From Solirubrobacterales bacterium (GTDB lineage Bacteria > Actinomycetota > Thermoleophilia > Solirubrobacterales > Solirubrobacteraceae): DNA of 64,000 bases. The DNA lies in NCBI GenBank assembly GCA_947474595.1, contig CANJIV010000001.1, forward strand, positions 1-64,000, read 5' to 3'. A program made the position numbers and the translations under genes. Below, one piece after another: positions 14,478-27,114 of the stretch; within the stretch, counting starts at the first letter, position 1; each line of letters begins with the position of its first letter. Under the pieces are notes generated by a model, which was not told where the DNA came from, ran no database searches, and was given only the letters and a program-made list of their open reading frames with translations.

Positions 14478-15350
14478 TCAGGCAGCTCGTACTACCCGGA
14501 AGCCAAGGTTTCCCGATGAACTTTCTGGAGTGTTCGAACTGCGTGCGTCGACCCTGTAGCGGCGACAGTAAGAATCGTGACAGAGGTACGAGCCGCCGCG
14601 CTGGACGCGGGGGGCCTCGGGGGGGGCTAGCGGTCCTTGGGGGTCTGACTTTGGGCTGACGGAGTAGTAGTCAGCGTTGTAGGCATCTGAGCACATCTCC
14701 CAAACGTTGCCGGTCATCTGGTAGAGGCCGAAATCGTTGGGCTCAAAAGAATCAACTGGAGCGGTCCCCGCAAAGCCGTCAGCGCAGGTATTTGATTCGA
14801 AAAACTCACCTTGGAAGACGTTCATGCGGTGCTCGCCGTCGGGCTCGAGCTGACTGCCCCAAGGAAATGCCATGCCCTTGAGTGCGCCGCGCGCCGCGTA
14901 CTCCCACTGCGCCTCTGTTGGCAGCTGCGCATCCACCCACTCACAGTATGCGCCGGCGTCGTTCCAGCTGACGTGGACAACAGGATGGTCGCCGCGATCG
15001 CTGATGTCGCTCTGTGGCCCCTCCGGGTGCCTCCAGTCAGCACCAAAGACTTGGCGCCACCACTGCGCACGCTGAACGGCGCGAGTGGCCTCGAAGTCCT
15101 CGGGCAAGAACATCGTAAAGACGAACGACCAGCCGAACTCTTCTGCTTGCGTACGGTGGCCCGTTGCCTGCACGAACTCTGCGAACTGGTCGTTGCTAAC
15201 CGTGTATGCAGTGATCGCGAATGGCCGCAGCTTCACCTTGTGAACAGGACCCTCCCCGTCGGGCTCATAGCCGTCCCCTCGGCCGTTGCCCATCAAGAAT
15301 TTGCCGCCGTCAAGTTCAACCCAGACCAGTTCGGATCCAAGCGGACTCAA
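14478..15350 (-). CDS. Formylglycine-generating enzyme (sulfatase-activating)
   Basis: SUMF1/EgtB-superfamily protein, 290 aa, one domain. The C-terminal signature RGGSYLCHDSYCRRYRVDAR carries both cysteines (Cys257 and Cys262) that bind copper and act in genuine FGEs, followed by SSNTPESS and NLGFR, which closely match the human enzyme; this argues against a generic SUMF1 domain. It would oxidise the cysteine of CxPxR in sulfatases to formylglycine before export. Three CSPAR sulfatases lie 5-12 kb away. The start is TTG at 15350 with AGGGA about 7 nt upstream. No signal peptide, consistent with a cytosolic enzyme acting before Tat export. Confidence 0.93.
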   Translation of the reverse strand: MSPLGSELVWVELDGGKFLMGNGRGDGYEPDGEGPVHKVKLRPFAITAYTVSNDQFAEFVQATGHRTQAEEFGWSFVFTMFLPEDFEATRAVQRAQWWRQVFGADWRHPEGPQSDISDRGDHPVVHVSWNDAGAYCEWVDAQLPTEAQWEYAARGALKGMAFPWGSQLEPDGEHRMNVFQGEFFESNTCADGFAGTAPVDSFEPNDFGLYQMTGNVWEMCSDAYNADYYSVSPKSDPQGPLAPPEAPRVQRGGSYLCHDSYCRRYRVDARSSNTPESSSGNLGFRVVRAA

Positions 15351-20744: not shown

Positions 20745-20750
20745 TAGGTT
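20745..20750 (+). promoter_or_regulatory. -10 box TAGGTT, leaderless start for sulfatase 1
   Basis: TAGGTT ends 7 nt before the ATG at 20758. The identical hexamer precedes sulfatase 3, which supports the choice of 20758 over the ATG at 20692. Confidence 0.65.
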
Positions 20751-20757
20751 CCTATCC

Positions 20758-22893
20758 ATGACCATCAAAACAGATCTCACTCGCAACCAGTTCCTTAAAG
20801 GCGCAGCAGCTTCATCTCTGGCCGTAATGCTCGGATCTGGCGCCCAAGACGCCCTTGCCGCCGGCGGCGATGACGCTCACGCAGCGATCACCGGATTCAA
20901 GGGTAAGAACGTCGTGATGTTCATAACCGATCAGGAGCGCGAGCAGATGCACTTCCCGAAGGGATGGAGTGCAAAAAACCTCCCGGGGATGAACCGGCTG
21001 AGGAAAAACGGCATCCAATTTCATAATTCGTTTACTAACTCCTGCATGTGCTCGCCGGCCCGCGCCACACTGCTAACTGGCTTGATGCCGGCTCAACACT
21101 GTGTCCGCCACACGCTTGAGCCCAACATGCCGGCCGAGCAATACCCACAGGTAGAGCTAGATACCGAACTTAAGAACATCGCCTCCGTGATGGCTGCCGC
21201 TGGCTACGCGGTAATTTACAAAGGCAAGTTCCATCTCACCAAGCAAGCCGTGATCGATGGAGTAACGCAGCCGTGGGTGCCCGAAGATCTATCTAAGTAC
21301 GGCTTCGCGCGCTGGAATCCCAAGGACGCGGGCGGCAACCAGTTCCTATCCGAGGGCGGAGGCGACGCCTATGAAAACCTAAACGCAGACCCCTCGAGCA
21401 GCAACTATACGGGCGGCAACAACGACGACCGCTTCATGAACGAAGACGGCGACATGGCCCTCGGCCACGAGGGCGCGATCGCCTACATCAACTCAGCCGC
21501 TGCCCAGCAGCAGCCGTTCTTCATGATTATCTCGCTCGTCAACCCCCACGACGTTCTCTTCTACCCACAGAACTTTGAGAACGCGATGTATGCCGACTCC
21601 GACCTCCAAGGGACGATCGAGATCCCGGCGTCTGCCACCGACAGCTTTAAGACCAAGCCGCAGGCCCAGCAGGCTATCTTCCGCCTCTTTAACCTCTCCG
21701 GCAGGCTCAATAATAAGCTCCAGCAGCGTCGCTATTTGAACTTCTATGGCAACCTGATGAAGAAGTCTGATGGCTATCTCGTGGATACGCTCGATGCCCT
21801 CAAAGCTAAGGGGCTGCTTGACGACACGGTCATCATCCGCACCTCCGACCATGGCGAGATGGGTATTACCCACGGAGGAATGCGCCAGAAGTCCTTCGTC
21901 TTCTATGAGGACGTGCTCCGCGTGCCGCTGATCTACTCCAACCCAAAGCTCTTCCCCAAGCCGCGCCAAAGCGACGCATTGGTATCGCACGTTGACTTCC
22001 TGCCAACGATCGCAACCTTGTTCGGAGCGCCTAAATCAGCCCGCGCGAAGTGGCAGGGAGTCGACTACTCCAGCCTGATTGCCAACCCTAAGGCCAAGCC
22101 CGTTCAGGATTACATCGTCTTTACGTATGACGACTTCCAGTGCGGCCAGTCAACCCGCCCGTACACGCCCGAGCCTAACCACATGGCCAGCATCCGTGAG
22201 ACTCGTTGGAAGCTTGCACGCTACTACGACCCGCGTGGAGAGAAGGCGACCGAGTGGGAGATGTACGACCTCCACAGCGACCCCGACGAGCGCGACAATC
22301 TGACGGCTCCAAGCGCGAAGCGCACTCCGCAGCAGGAGCGCGAGTTCAAGCGTCTAAAGGCCAAGCTCGCAACTGTTGAACTTAAGCGCCTTGCGCCGAT
22401 GGTCGGCCGAAAGGTTCCGATCGACATGACCGCTTCGACAAAGCAAGCTAAGGGCAGCAAGACGTTTAAGTTCACCGATAAGGGCACCTGCACAGGCGTG
22501 CCTACCGGGAACGGCACGATCGTCGCTGATTGGGTGCTTAACCCGACCAAGAAGACAGGCGTCTCACACCTGACGATTGACTGCGGGGCAGGATCGATCT
22601 ATGGCGTTGCAAAAGTCAGTTATTCGATCGATCAAGCGACTTCAACCATCACGCTGACCGGCAAGCTCAATGTTCTTGGCGGCAGGGGCGACTTCCGTGG
22701 CCTTAAGGGCTCTGGACTTAACTTCCAAATGACCGACAATCTCCGCGGCACCAATGGCAAGATGACGATTACCGGCACTACGGCATACACCAACGATGGG
22801 GCCTACTCTGGCAACCTGGGCGCTGGCGGCAACGGCGGCAATGGCGGCGTTGGCGGCAACGGCGGCAATGGCGGCGCTGGCGGCGCGGCCTAG
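20758..22893 (+). CDS. Sulfatase 1, exported, glycine-rich tail
   Basis: Formylglycine-dependent sulfatase of 711 aa. Order: Tat-like signal (TRNQFLKGAAASSLAVML, then cleavage near DALA-AGG), alkaline-phosphatase-fold sulfatase domain about 48-560 with metal ligand Asp58 (FITDQER), the modified Cys98 in C-S-P-A-R, and TSDHGEMG; a small C-terminal beta-rich domain (about 565-685); then a GGNGG-type tail. The tail is encoded by two near-identical 27-bp units and is absent from the paralogues. The usual RR of the Tat motif is RN. The stop is a single UAG in frame with sulfatase 2. Substrate unknown; the DQ pair at the metal site also occurs in choline-sulfatase-like enzymes. Confidence 0.9.
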   Translation: MTIKTDLTRNQFLKGAAASSLAVMLGSGAQDALAAGGDDAHAAITGFKGKNVVMFITDQEREQMHFPKGWSAKNLPGMNRLRKNGIQFHNSFTNSCMCSPARATLLTGLMPAQHCVRHTLEPNMPAEQYPQVELDTELKNIASVMAAAGYAVIYKGKFHLTKQAVIDGVTQPWVPEDLSKYGFARWNPKDAGGNQFLSEGGGDAYENLNADPSSSNYTGGNNDDRFMNEDGDMALGHEGAIAYINSAAAQQQPFFMIISLVNPHDVLFYPQNFENAMYADSDLQGTIEIPASATDSFKTKPQAQQAIFRLFNLSGRLNNKLQQRRYLNFYGNLMKKSDGYLVDTLDALKAKGLLDDTVIIRTSDHGEMGITHGGMRQKSFVFYEDVLRVPLIYSNPKLFPKPRQSDALVSHVDFLPTIATLFGAPKSARAKWQGVDYSSLIANPKAKPVQDYIVFTYDDFQCGQSTRPYTPEPNHMASIRETRWKLARYYDPRGEKATEWEMYDLHSDPDERDNLTAPSAKRTPQQEREFKRLKAKLATVELKRLAPMVGRKVPIDMTASTKQAKGSKTFKFTDKGTCTGVPTGNGTIVADWVLNPTKKTGVSHLTIDCGAGSIYGVAKVSYSIDQATSTITLTGKLNVLGGRGDFRGLKGSGLNFQMTDNLRGTNGKMTITGTTAYTNDGAYSGNLGAGGNGGNGGVGGNGGNGGAGGAA
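22825..22878 (+). repeat. Two 27-bp direct repeats encoding a Gly/Asn-rich tail
   Basis: Units at 22825-22851 and 22852-22878 differ only near their last codon and encode GGNGGNGGV and GGNGGNGGA. They form the C-terminal tail of sulfatase 1, directly before its stop codon. Confidence 0.9.
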
Positions 22894-22905
22894 GGGCTCT
22901 TTTTC

Positions 22906-25005
22906 ATTACACCAAAGATCAATAGCGATTTTACGCGCGGCACATTTCTAAAAGGCGCGGCTGCCTCGTCTTTAGCCGTAATGCTTGGACCAGGCACTCG
23001 TGAGGCCCTTGCCGCTGGCGGCGATGAGGCCTCTGCGGCCGTCGCAGGGTTCAAGGGTAAGAACGTAGTTCTCTTCATGACCGACCAAGAGCGCGCGCTG
23101 CAGCACTTTCCCAAAGGCTGGGGCGCAAAGAACCTGCCTGCCCAGACCCAGCTAGCTAAGAATGGTCTGACATTCAGTAACTGCTTCACCAACGCAGCGA
23201 TGTGCTCACCTGCGCGCACGTCGATGATGACCGGCTTTATGCCAGCCCAACATCAAGTACGCCACACACTTGAGAGCAGCATGAATGACACCTTCGACAG
23301 CGAAGGCAACTTGGTCTACGAATACCCACAAGTGCCGCTTTCGACTGAGCTCAAGAGCATGGCTAGCGTGATGGCCGCCGCCGGCTATAACGTCGTCTGG
23401 AAGGGTAAGTTTCACATGACCAAACAGGCGGTGACTGCGCCCGCCACGCTACCGACATCCGGGCAGCGTCCGGTGGCCGGAACGGTGCAGGAGTGGACGC
23501 CGGCTGACGTCGGCGCCTACGGTCCGCTGCGCTGGAATCCAAAGGACGCGGGCGCCAACCAGTCACTTTCCGAGGGCGGAGGCGACGCCTTTGAAAACCA
23601 AGACGCAGACCACCCGCGCAACAACTATACGGGCGGCGACAACGATCAACGCTTCATGACCGATGCCGGCAGCGTGAGTGACGGTGATGAGGGCGTTATC
23701 TCATACATCACCTCGGTCGCCGCAACGCAGGCCCCCTTCTTCCTCGTCATCTCACTCGTCAACCCTCACGACGTGCTCTTCTACCCCAGATCCTTTAGCA
23801 ACAGCCTCTATCCCAGCGACACCCTAGAAGGCAGCATTGAACTGCCCAGCACGACCAATGAAAGCCTCAAGAGCAAGCCCAAGGCCCAACAGGCCTTCCA
23901 GAAGCTTCTACAGCTATCCGGATTGATCATCACGCGGTCCAAGCAGCGCAAATATGTGAACTTCTACGGAAATCTCATGCGTGAAGCCGATGGCTATCTC
24001 CAACAGACCCTCAATGCGCTCGAGCAGCAGGGCCTTCTCGACGACACCCTAATCATCCGCACAGCAGACCACGGCGAGATGGCGATGGCTCATGGCGGTG
24101 TGCGTGAAAAGAACTTCAACTTCTACGAAGAGACGATGAAGGTTCCCCTGATCTACTCCAACCCTAAGCTCTTTCCCAAGGCCCGCCGCAGTGACGCTCT
24201 GGTCTCACACATTGACCTTGTGCCGACGCTGGCCACCCTCTTCGGCACACCTAAGTCAGCTCGCGCCAAGTGGCAGGGCGTCGACTACTCACGACTACTG
24301 ACAGACCCCAAGGCCAAGGCGGTCCAGGACTACGTCATGTTCACCTACGACGACTACCAGTCAGGCCAGCCTAACGGCCCATACGTGACCGGGGCTAACC
24401 ACATCTCGAGCATCCGCGAGCTGCGCTGGAAGCTGGCCCGCTACTACGACCCGTTGGGCGTAGCTAAGACTGAGTATGAGATGTATGACCTCCATCGCGA
24501 TCCCAACGAATCCAGAAACCTCGCAGCCTCTAGCCACGGTCGCAGCGCGCTGGAAGAGCGCGAGTACAAGCGCCTTAAGAGAAAGCTGACACGAGTAGAA
24601 GCTACACGGCTTGGACCCATTCCAGGGACGGCTCAACCGATCCAAATGACTGCTCAAACAAGGCAAACCAAAGACAGCAAGACGTTTAAGTTCACCGATA
24701 AGGGCCGCTGTGTTGGAATGCCCACAGGGCGTGGCAATATCTTGATCGACTGGGTGCTTGATCCGGCCAAGAAGACGGGCGTCGGTCAGTTGACGATGAG
24801 TAGTGGCGCGGGCATTATCAAAGGAGTCGCTAGAGTCAAATTCGCAACTAGCGATAGACGGATAACGCTAACGGGAACGCTCAAAATTGTCGGCGGCACG
24901 GGTGATTTTCGGGGCATTAGTGGTAGCGGCATCAGCTTCATCGAGACCGATAATCTGCGCGGCACCGATGGGCAGATAACGATCACGGGCAACGCTACTT
25001 ATTAG
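22906..25005 (+). CDS. Sulfatase 2, exported; no conventional start codon
   Basis: Paralogue of sulfatases 1 and 3 with the same order: signal, catalytic domain with C-S-P-A-R (Cys about 100), TADHGEMA, and C-terminal beta-rich domain ending ITITGNATY. The signal region homologous to the paralogues (FTRGTFLKGAAASSLAV) is in frame from 22906, but between the sulfatase 1 stop (22891-22893) and that region there is no ATG, GTG or TTG. The best candidate is ATT at 22906 with AGGGG 9 nt upstream, overlapping the previous stop. ATG at 22981 is in frame but would delete the signal. Alternatives are UAG readthrough from sulfatase 1, a mutated start, or a sequencing error. Confidence 0.8.
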   Translation: MTPKINSDFTRGTFLKGAAASSLAVMLGPGTREALAAGGDEASAAVAGFKGKNVVLFMTDQERALQHFPKGWGAKNLPAQTQLAKNGLTFSNCFTNAAMCSPARTSMMTGFMPAQHQVRHTLESSMNDTFDSEGNLVYEYPQVPLSTELKSMASVMAAAGYNVVWKGKFHMTKQAVTAPATLPTSGQRPVAGTVQEWTPADVGAYGPLRWNPKDAGANQSLSEGGGDAFENQDADHPRNNYTGGDNDQRFMTDAGSVSDGDEGVISYITSVAATQAPFFLVISLVNPHDVLFYPRSFSNSLYPSDTLEGSIELPSTTNESLKSKPKAQQAFQKLLQLSGLIITRSKQRKYVNFYGNLMREADGYLQQTLNALEQQGLLDDTLIIRTADHGEMAMAHGGVREKNFNFYEETMKVPLIYSNPKLFPKARRSDALVSHIDLVPTLATLFGTPKSARAKWQGVDYSRLLTDPKAKAVQDYVMFTYDDYQSGQPNGPYVTGANHISSIRELRWKLARYYDPLGVAKTEYEMYDLHRDPNESRNLAASSHGRSALEEREYKRLKRKLTRVEATRLGPIPGTAQPIQMTAQTRQTKDSKTFKFTDKGRCVGMPTGRGNILIDWVLDPAKKTGVGQLTMSSGAGIIKGVARVKFATSDRRITLTGTLKIVGGTGDFRGISGSGISFIETDNLRGTDGQITITGNATY

Positions 25006-25040
25006 CAGCAGAAGCGGCTATGCACTAGCCCTTCGGCGGA

Positions 25041-25057
25041 ACCGGTGCCCGACCGGT
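25041..25057 (+). promoter_or_regulatory. ACCGGT-N5-ACCGGT operator-like element
   Basis: Two copies of the palindromic hexamer ACCGGT, 11 bp apart (one helical turn), overlap the expected -35 region of the sulfatase 3 promoter, whose -10 box is at 25069. The spacing suggests a dimeric repressor or activator site. I did not see it upstream of sulfatase 1. Confidence 0.5.
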
Positions 25058-25068
25058 AATGGGTGTGT

Positions 25069-25074
25069 TAGGTT
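25069..25074 (+). promoter_or_regulatory. -10 box TAGGTT, leaderless start for sulfatase 3
   Basis: TAGGTT ends 6 nt before the ATG at 25081, the same hexamer as at sulfatase 1. The hexamer before it shows no good -35, as expected for a regulated promoter. Confidence 0.6.
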
Positions 25075-25080
25075 GTCGTA

Positions 25081-27114
25081 ATGCCAACAGAAACCGGAAT
25101 TAACCGCAACCAATTTCTAAAAGGAGCGGCGGCCTCATCTCTGGCAGTAATGCTTGGATCGGGGGGGCGCGATGCACTCGCCGCAGGCGGGGACGAAGCG
25201 GCAGCTGCGGTAGCCGGTTTCAAAGGCAAGAACGTCGTTATGTTTATCACCGACCAAGAGCGGGGAATCCAGCACTTCCCGACAGGGTGGGCCGCCAAGA
25301 ACCTCCCCGGCCATCAGCGGCTGATTAAGAACGGCCTGGTCTTCGAGAACGCCTTTACTAACTCATGCATGTGCTCGCCGGCCCGCGCCTCGCTAATGAC
25401 CGGCTACATGCCTGCTCAGCATAGGGTTCGTCACTCGATTTCAAAGGACCTGCCAGAGACCAACTACCCCAATGTGTTGCTCTCCACCGAACTAAAGAAC
25501 ATCGCCTCAGTGATGTCTTCGGCTGGGTACACAGTGATCTGGAAGGGGAAGTGGCATCTGACCAAGGGCCAGATTGTGACCGACCCAACGACGGGCGAAG
25601 TAGTCGAGACTTTCGTCCCCGGAGACGTCGCAAAGTACGGCTTTGGCCGCTGGAATCCCAAGGACGCTGGGGCCAACGCCGATCTAGACCAAGGTGGAGG
25701 AGACGCCTTTGAGAACAATTTAGTCCCCTACACGGGCGGCGACAACGACGCGCGCTTCATGGATGACAACGGCGACGTTGCGGCCGGCAAAGAGGGCGCC
25801 CTTGCATACCTAGGCTCCGTGGCCGCAACTCAGCAGCCGTTTTTCATCGCAATTTCGCTAGTCAACCCCCACGACGTGATCCTTTATCCCGGGCAGTACG
25901 AAGACTCGCTATACGCCGATTCCACCCTAGACGGCGCCATTGGCCTACCAGCGACCGTCAACGAAAACTTAAAAAATAAGCCGCGAGCACAAGCTGCGTG
26001 GCAGCGCCTCACGAGTCTTGGATTAGGTGCCCTTAGGACCAACGCGGCTAAGCGCAAGTTTCTCAACTTCTACTCGAACCTTATGAAGGAGTCAGACGCC
26101 TACCTAGTCGAGGTCCTGGACCTACTAGAGGCCCAAGGCCTAATCGACGACACAGTGATCATCCGCACCTCCGACCACGGCGAAACCGGCATGGCTCACG
26201 GAACCTCCCGAGAGAAGTCATTTAATACCTATGAAGAGACGACGAAGATCCCTCTGATCTACTCGAACCCAAAGCTCTTTCCCAAGCCGCGTCGCACCGA
26301 GGCCTTGGTCTCCCACATCGACTTCTTGCCAACCATTGCAAGCCTGTTTGGAGCCCCAAGCGCGGCGCGCACCCAGTGGCAGGGCGTTGACTACTCGAAG
26401 GTGATCGCCAATCCCAAGGCGCCGGCGCCACAGGACTACGTCATGTTCACCTACGACGATTGGCAGTGCGGTGGCAGTAGCGGCCCCTACGTCCCGGAGC
26501 CTAATCACATCGCCAGCATCCGGGAGAAGCGCTGGAAGCTCGCGCGCTACTACGACCCGAGAGGTATAGAGAAGACCGAGTGGGAGATGTATGACCTGCA
26601 ACGCGACCCTAACGAGGCGATAAACCTCGCGGCCTCTGGCCGGCGACGTACGCCTCTCCAGGAGCGCGAATACAAGCGCATGAAGGCAAAGCTGGCTCGC
26701 GTCGAGAAGACGCGACTAGGGCCTATCCCTGGCACCAAGCAGGCAGTCTCGCTAACAGCGGCCACCAAGCAAACCAAAACCAGCAAGGCCCTTAAGTTGA
26801 CTGACATTGGCACGATAACTGGACTTCCAGTTGGTTCGGGCAGAGTCGTTATCGCGTGGGTACTCGATGCAGAGAAGTTGACCGGCGTTGGCAAGCTCAC
26901 GATCAGCTGTGGGTCGGGATTGATCAAGGGCCAGGCTACGGTCACAACGGTGACCGCAGGCGACACCATCACGCGCACCGGCAAGATCACGCTAACCGCG
27001 GGCACCGGTGATTTCCGGGGCATTAGAGGGAGCGGCCTCAGTTTCGTTGAGACCGACAATCTCGAAGGCACCAACGGGCAGATCACGATCACTGGCAACG
27101 CCACCTACCAGTAG
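25081..27114 (+). CDS. Sulfatase 3, exported
   Basis: Third tandem formylglycine sulfatase, 677 aa. Tat-like signal INRNQFLKGAAASSLAVML, again with only one arginine at the RR position; catalytic domain with FITDQER, C-S-P-A-R at Cys98, WKGKWHLTKG and TSDHGETG; C-terminal beta-rich domain from about 560 ending with GTGDFRGIRGSGLSF. Unlike sulfatase 2 it has its own promoter and ATG. It is convergent with the DsbA-like gene, with 10 nt between stops. The three enzymes differ most in loops after the active site, so they may take different sulfate esters. Confidence 0.92.
   Translation: MPTETGINRNQFLKGAAASSLAVMLGSGGRDALAAGGDEAAAAVAGFKGKNVVMFITDQERGIQHFPTGWAAKNLPGHQRLIKNGLVFENAFTNSCMCSPARASLMTGYMPAQHRVRHSISKDLPETNYPNVLLSTELKNIASVMSSAGYTVIWKGKWHLTKGQIVTDPTTGEVVETFVPGDVAKYGFGRWNPKDAGANADLDQGGGDAFENNLVPYTGGDNDARFMDDNGDVAAGKEGALAYLGSVAATQQPFFIAISLVNPHDVILYPGQYEDSLYADSTLDGAIGLPATVNENLKNKPRAQAAWQRLTSLGLGALRTNAAKRKFLNFYSNLMKESDAYLVEVLDLLEAQGLIDDTVIIRTSDHGETGMAHGTSREKSFNTYEETTKIPLIYSNPKLFPKPRRTEALVSHIDFLPTIASLFGAPSAARTQWQGVDYSKVIANPKAPAPQDYVMFTYDDWQCGGSSGPYVPEPNHIASIREKRWKLARYYDPRGIEKTEWEMYDLQRDPNEAINLAASGRRRTPLQEREYKRMKAKLARVEKTRLGPIPGTKQAVSLTAATKQTKTSKALKLTDIGTITGLPVGSGRVVIAWVLDAEKLTGVGKLTISCGSGLIKGQATVTTVTAGDTITRTGKITLTAGTGDFRGIRGSGLSFVETDNLEGTNGQITITGNATYQ

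What the first reader, a model, noticed from the sequence alone, without database searches (positions are those of the whole stretch)
22880..22985. Sulfatase 2 has no ATG/GTG/TTG for its signal peptide and is in frame with sulfatase 1 across one UAG
20758-25005 is one open frame broken only by UAG at 22891. The sequence after it, GLFFITPKINSDFTRGTFLK, is homologous to the paralogues' signal peptides from the TRxxFLKG part on, but contains no standard start. ATT at 22906 has AGGGG 9 nt upstream, a possible AUU start (rare, as in infC). The alternative is readthrough giving a double-sulfatase protein joined by the GGNGG-rich tail that only sulfatase 1 has, which would make a natural linker. Either is unusual.
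Basis: partly seen in the sequence, partly recalled or inferred. Interest (0 to 1): 0.72.

Follow-up and report, generated by a model that had tools for sequence, protein, structure and literature searches.

The report
Sulfatase gene missing its normal start
In one freshwater actinobacterium, the middle gene of three side-by-side secreted sulfatases has lost the promoter box and start codon that its relatives keep, yet the rest of the gene is intact, so it is probably read weakly from an unusual AUU start (or was silenced very recently) and is probably not fused to its neighbour by reading through a stop.

Summary
In detail: 20758-25005 is one frame broken only by TAG at 22891-22893, and no ATG/GTG/TTG lies between that stop and the S2 signal peptide. 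Readthrough is unlikely: the genome has RF1, uses TAG as its commonest stop, has no suppressor tRNA, and no relative has the two-gene frame. New finding: S1, S3 and all five relatives whose 5' end is held carry a TAnnnT box 6-7 nt before an ATG/GTG, the signature of leaderless mRNAs. S2 alone has neither; the S1 stop lies roughly where the box would be expected (TAGGGG against TAGGTT). S2 is nevertheless the orthologue of the single sulfatase of a sister genus (74% identity, dN/dS about 0.13), with no stop or frameshift in 699 codons. Best explanation: S2 lost its own leaderless start when the junction with S1 was remodelled, and is now translated weakly from an S1-S2 message at a non-AUG codon, most likely AUU 22906, 12 nt after the UAG. 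Recent silencing (within about 1-2% neutral divergence) or a consensus error cannot be excluded; one of six relatives carries an internal stop. If real, it is one more case of a known rarity.

The parts
20745..20750 (+). TAGGTT, -10-type box (TGT-TAGGTT) 7 nt before the S1 ATG: leaderless-type promoter/start
   Evidence: TANNNT is 10-fold enriched at 6-7 nt before ATG in this genome
20758..22893 (+). sulfatase 1 (S1), 711 aa, ATG start, TAG stop
   Evidence: PF00884 E 2.3e-40
22789..22890 (+). S1-only C-terminal tail (TNDGAYSGNLGAGGNGGNGG...GGAA), Gly-rich repeat that runs up to the TAG
   Evidence: alignment: S2, S3 and relatives end at ..TGNATY(Q)
22891..22893 (+). TAG stop of S1; first three bases of TAGGGG, which resembles the -10 box TAGGTT of S1 and S3 (homology suggested, not proven)
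22892..22896 (+). AGGGG, possible Shine-Dalgarno, 9 nt before ATT 22906; -5.6 kcal/mol with anti-SD, matched by 28% of random sites
22906..22908 (+). ATT, most likely start codon of S2 if it is translated with its signal peptide
   Evidence: alignment to the family start ambiguous between ATT and CCA 22912
22918..22920 (+). ATC, second near-cognate candidate, no Shine-Dalgarno at a usable distance (-0.2 kcal/mol)
22906..25005 (+). sulfatase 2 (S2), 699 codons from the ATT, intact; catalytic CSPAR motif kept
22930..23016 (+). Tat-like signal peptide of S2 (DFTRGTFLKGAAASSLAVMLGPGTREALAA), homologous to those of S1, S3 and relatives
22981..22983 (+). first canonical in-frame ATG of S2; would give a 674-aa protein without a signal peptide; no TANNNT, no SD (-1.5 kcal/mol)
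25069..25074 (+). TAGGTT -10-type box 6 nt before the S3 ATG
25081..27114 (+). sulfatase 3 (S3), 677 aa, normal ATG
14478..15350 (-). formylglycine-generating enzyme, the only one in the genome; would activate the CxPxR cysteine of the sulfatases
   Evidence: PF03781 E 5.5e-76, single hit in the genome

Best explanation
S1-S2-S3 is a tandem array of secreted S1-family sulfatases whose members were originally each expressed from their own leaderless promoter (TANNNT box 6-7 nt before ATG/GTG). In this lineage the S1-S2 junction was remodelled: the S1 frame now runs through a Gly-rich tail to a TAG that sits roughly where the S2 -10 box would be, and S2 no longer has a TANNNT box or an ATG/GTG/TTG. 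The S2 coding sequence has stayed intact under purifying selection, so most likely it is still made, at a low level, from an S1-S2 bicistronic mRNA, by initiation at a near-cognate codon (AUU 22906, 12 nt after the UAG, with AGGGG as a weak Shine-Dalgarno), helped by ribosomes terminating on S1. Shown: loss of both elements, intact and conserved frame, normal starts in relatives. Inferred: bicistronic mRNA, initiation at AUU, coupling.
For: No canonical start. S1, S3 and 5/5 relatives have TANNNT ending 6-7 nt before the start, S2 has none; motif density is 0.003 per position. Leaderless boxes are enriched before ATG genome-wide. S2 is the orthologue of the sister-genus gene (support 100/100, ordinary branch length), dN/dS about 0.13 against them. 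If S2 were silent, its intact frame would allow only about 1-2% neutral divergence since then, against dS of 1.2 or more to the nearest relatives. S1-S2 intergenic distance is 12 nt to the AUU, a range in which reinitiation is reduced but measurable (PMC10666635). The AUU is in an unpaired stretch of the predicted mRNA fold. Natural AUU/AUC/GUC starts are known in infC, sigR and cvfC1 and give roughly 10% of AUG where measured (PMC5472188, PMC13009471).
Against: No relative has the AUU. The SD is weak (28% of random sites are as good). Alignment places the ancestral start at ATT or at CCA 22912 depending on gap costs. No RNA or protein data. One of six relatives (L040) has an internal TGA, so fresh mutations or consensus errors do occur in this family.
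Confidence: 0.43

Rival explanations
1. S2 was silenced recently: promoter box and start codon are gone and the gene is no longer made; S1 and S3 cover its function, and the frame has not yet had time to decay.
For: Both expression signals of the family are absent at S2 only; two paralogues remain; one relative's single copy has an internal stop (L040).
Against: 699 codons without a stop or frameshift; if silent, less than about 1-2% neutral divergence has passed; no sign of relaxed selection or a long branch. Several junction changes (box, start, inserted bases, tail) rather than one point mutation suggest a longer time with a working gene.
Confidence: 0.25
2. The junction is wrong in the assembly: a miscalled base in the start codon, or a one-base length error in the G4 or T5 run between the S1 tail and S2, hides a normal start or an upstream out-of-frame ATG overlapping the end of S1.
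For: The sequence is a draft genome of 14 contigs; the junction has a low-complexity GC-rich repeat, a G4 and a T5 run; ATGs at 22841 and 22868 lie in another frame.
Against: All three 2-kb frames are otherwise clean. A single base call would not restore a TANNNT box, and an upstream start would give an N-terminus unlike any relative.
Confidence: 0.17
3. S2 starts at ATG 22981 and is now a cytoplasmic, signal-less sulfatase.
For: First canonical in-frame start; it is what a gene caller would choose.
Against: Neither SD (-1.5 kcal/mol) nor TANNNT precedes it; it lies inside the conserved hydrophobic core of the signal peptide; the residues before it (TRGTFLKGAAASSLAV) are conserved with S1 and S3 although synonymous sites are saturated.
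Confidence: 0.09
4. UAG is read through, giving a two-sulfatase fusion joined by the Gly-rich tail.
For: The two genes are in frame across a single UAG and S1 alone has a flexible tail; low basal leakage of any stop is expected.
Against: RF1 present; TAG ends 127 of 313 sampled genes and also S2 and S3; no tRNA with anticodon CUA among 45; no unusual RNA structure (z 0.31); no relative has the frame; the fusion would hold a conserved signal peptide in its middle.
Confidence: 0.03

Closest known systems
Non-AUG-started bacterial genes: infC (AUU in E. coli, AUC in Streptomyces), E. coli pcnB (AUU), Streptomyces sigR (GUC), S. aureus cvfC1 (AUU) and ccpN (AUA)
   Same: Coding sequence without ATG/GTG/TTG at its homologous start, near-cognate codon with a purine-rich stretch at 5-11 nt; low expression expected
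   Different: Those starts are conserved across relatives or experimentally shown, mostly in regulators held at low dose, with strong or extended SD. Here the codon is unique to one genome, the SD is weak, and the product is a secreted enzyme in a tandem array
Leaderless genes with a TANNNT -10 box at the start (M. tuberculosis and other Actinobacteria, PMC3898074)
   Same: S1, S3 and the relatives' genes have exactly this layout
   Different: S2 has lost it; the S1 stop codon lies at about the place of the box
Translational coupling by termination-reinitiation (PMC6728339, PMC10666635)
   Same: Stop and proposed start are 12 nt apart on one strand
   Different: Typical pairs overlap by 4 or 1 nt and use AUG
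Secreted FGE-dependent S1-family sulfatases (Pfam PF00884)
   Same: Domain, CSPAR motif, FGE gene nearby
   Different: Extra C-terminal all-beta domain of about 90 aa found in this freshwater clade; 540-aa relatives in the order lack it

Membership tests
Gene with a natural non-AUG start (infC/pcnB/sigR kind) | No ATG/GTG/TTG usable at the homologous 5' end | tested here: met
Gene with a natural non-AUG start (infC/pcnB/sigR kind) | Near-cognate codon at SD distance with a convincing SD | tested here: inconclusive
   AGGGG 9 nt before ATT, -5.6 kcal/mol, but 28% of random sites equal
Gene with a natural non-AUG start (infC/pcnB/sigR kind) | Non-canonical codon conserved in relatives | tested here: not met
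   five of five relatives with a complete 5' end use ATG or GTG; no second genome of the genus is held
Gene with a natural non-AUG start (infC/pcnB/sigR kind) | Initiation shown by N-terminal peptide or ribosome profiling; IF3 sensitivity | not testable with these tools
   no expression data
Programmed stop-codon readthrough | Decoding tRNA or reassigned/rare stop | tested here: not met
   no CUA tRNA, RF1 present, TAG commonest stop
Programmed stop-codon readthrough | Stop and downstream frame conserved in relatives | tested here: not met
   tandem in-frame pair found only in this genome among 232 genomes of the order
Programmed stop-codon readthrough | Stimulatory RNA structure | tested here: not met
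   z 0.31
Leaderless gene | TANNNT 6-9 nt before ATG/GTG | tested here: not met
   S2 has none; S1, S3 and five relatives do
Pseudogene | Expression signals lost | tested here: met
   no TANNNT, no canonical start
Pseudogene | Frame decay or relaxed selection | tested here: not met
   no stop or frameshift in 699 codons, dN/dS about 0.13, ordinary branch
Sulfatase family PF00884, FGE-dependent type | Sulfatase domain and CxPxR | tested here: met
   PF00884 E 2.6e-41; CSPAR in all three

The most novel reading that the evidence does not exclude
S2 uses an AUU start coupled to termination on S1, keeping a secreted enzyme at a fixed low ratio to its neighbour under IF3 control: a natural non-AUG start acquired recently by a gene that was leaderless in its relatives, i.e. 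a caught switch from leaderless to coupled, non-AUG initiation.
Probability: 0.22. Interest if true: 0.5.

Novelty: new member of a known kind. Interest (0 to 1): 0.33.

Why it matters
If the AUU start is real, gene callers will truncate S2 at ATG 22981 and mispredict a secreted sulfatase as cytoplasmic, and the locus shows how a gene can change from leaderless to coupled, non-AUG initiation while its protein stays under selection. If it is a fresh silencing, it is an ordinary case of redundancy after tandem duplication. Either way the double-sulfatase fusion should not be carried forward.

Tried and rejected
Suppressor tRNA / reassigned UAG: all 45 tRNAs typed, none CUA, RF1 found, TAG the commonest stop. 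Recoding structure: none. Source of the S1 Gly-rich tail elsewhere in the genome: only weak low-complexity matches, best E 9e-6. Exact ancestral start position: alignments with different gap costs disagree. Other genomes of the genus or tandem arrays in the order: none. Structure of the C-terminal domain: low-confidence model (pLDDT 68) and no fold match at E 0.001. infC of this genome as an internal example of a non-AUG start: looked at only in passing, not resolved.

Full report
Observation. The frame 20758-25005 is open except for TAG at 22891-22893. Between that stop and the conserved TRGTFLKGAAASS... of S2 there is no ATG, GTG or TTG in frame; the first is ATG 22981, inside the signal peptide. 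The near-cognate codons are ATT 22906, AAG 22915, ATC 22918 and ACG 22933. AGGGG lies 9 nt before the ATT.

The array. S1 (20758-22893), S2 (to 25005) and S3 (25081-27114) are full-length sulfatases (PF00884, E 1e-38 or better; SGSH_C), about 63% identical to each other, with CSPAR active-site motifs. The genome's only formylglycine-generating enzyme is 5 kb upstream at 14478-15350. Outside this genome the closest genes, 72-75% identical to S2, are single genes in freshwater Solirubrobacterales drafts of a sister genus (L039-L044), next to the same DsbA-like gene that follows S3 here. In a tree S2 groups with them (100/100) while S1 and S3 branch outside, so S2 is the orthologue and the duplications are older than the split. 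The tandem array itself was found in no other genome of the order (232 searched). Local stretches with near-identical third positions between S1 and S2 (19 of 21 matching codons around codon 210-240; 31 identical bases at 22455/24675) suggest gene conversion within the array.

The missing piece: leaderless starts. Lined up at their start codons, S1 (tgtTAGGTTcctatccATG), S3 (tgtTAGGTTgtcgtaATG) and all five relatives with a complete 5' end (TACCGT, TACCGT, TAAAGT, TAAGGT, TACGGT, each 6 nt before ATG or GTG) carry a TANNNT box ending 6-7 nt before the start; the motif occurs at 0.003 per position. In a 461-kb sample of the genome TANNNT is about tenfold enriched at 6-7 nt before candidate ATGs, alongside an ordinary SD signal at 7-11 nt. 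This is the layout of leaderless mRNAs in Actinobacteria (PMC3898074). S2 has no TANNNT anywhere near its 5' end. At about the expected place it reads ccTAGGGGctctttttcATT, and the TAG of TAGGGG is the stop of S1. I infer, without proof, that this is the decayed box; alignments of the few tens of bases do not fix whether the old start is now ATT 22906 or CCA 22912. So S2 has lost both signals, and the S1 frame has grown through a Gly-rich repeat, absent from all other members, to end there.

Readthrough. RF1 is present above cut-off. TAG ends 127 of 313 sampled long genes, more than TGA or TAA. All 45 tRNA genes were typed and none has a CUA anticodon. The RNA around the stop folds no better than shuffled sequence. 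No relative has the in-frame pair. A fusion would place a conserved signal peptide in the middle of the protein. I reject it as a designed product; ordinary leakage cannot be excluded.

Is S2 alive? Its frame has 699 codons without a stop or frameshift, dN/dS against the relatives is about 0.13 (relatives among themselves about 0.15), and its branch is not long. Simulated neutral decay leaves S2 intact with probability 0.13-0.23 at 1% divergence and 0.01-0.06 at 2% (with assumed indel rates). Either S2 is still made or it fell silent very recently relative to its divergence from the nearest relatives (dS 1.2-1.6). One of the six relatives (L040) carries a single internal TGA in an otherwise intact copy, a reminder that fresh mutations or consensus errors do occur in this family.

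Most likely mechanism. S2 has no promoter box of its own and sits 12 nt behind S1, so the simplest route is an S1-S2 message and initiation at a near-cognate codon helped by terminating ribosomes. AUU 22906 is the only near-cognate codon with an SD-like stretch at a normal distance (AGGGG, 9 nt, -5.6 kcal/mol; 28% of random sites are as good) and it lies in an unpaired stretch. Reinitiation at 13-14 nt is reduced but measurable in model systems (PMC10666635). Natural AUU/AUC/GUC starts exist (infC, sigR: PMC5472188; cvfC1 AUU at about 10% of AUG: PMC13009471). The bicistronic message, the AUU and the coupling are inferred.

Verdict. A real and slightly unusual junction, best read as the loss of a leaderless start with probable weak non-AUG initiation; recent silencing and a draft-sequence error remain open. 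At best a new member of a known, rare kind.

Noticed in passing
14478-15350 (-): Formylglycine-generating enzyme (PF03781, E 5.5e-76), the only one in the genome, 5 kb from the sulfatase array and next to ribosomal protein and nusG/secE genes.
   Followed up: yes
20758-27114 and L039-L044, L010, L054: Outgroup sulfatases have a twin-arginine signal (NRRQLLQ, TRRQLLKG), whereas the freshwater clade and this array have a single arginine (TRGQLLKG, TRNQFLKG, TRGTFLKG): possible loss of the second Tat arginine across a whole clade.
   Followed up: partly
24664-25002 (and the C-termini of S1 and S3): A C-terminal domain of about 90-110 aa with no Pfam family at cut-off (Dirigent at E 0.076), predicted all-beta at low confidence, no significant fold match; the 540-aa sulfatases elsewhere in the order lack it.
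   Followed up: partly
20758-25005: Gene-conversion-like tracts between S1 and S2 (31 identical bases at 22455/24675; codons 210-240 with 19/21 third positions equal) in genes otherwise saturated at synonymous sites.
   Followed up: partly
L040:3587-3589: The relative's single sulfatase has an in-frame TGA at a conserved Trp codon (R*NPKDAG) in an otherwise intact frame: fresh mutation or draft error.
   Followed up: no
L104 (infC, G000:C2:18117-18620, - strand): infC of this genome has no ATG near its start; GTG or a non-canonical codon are possible, as in Streptomyces.
   Followed up: no
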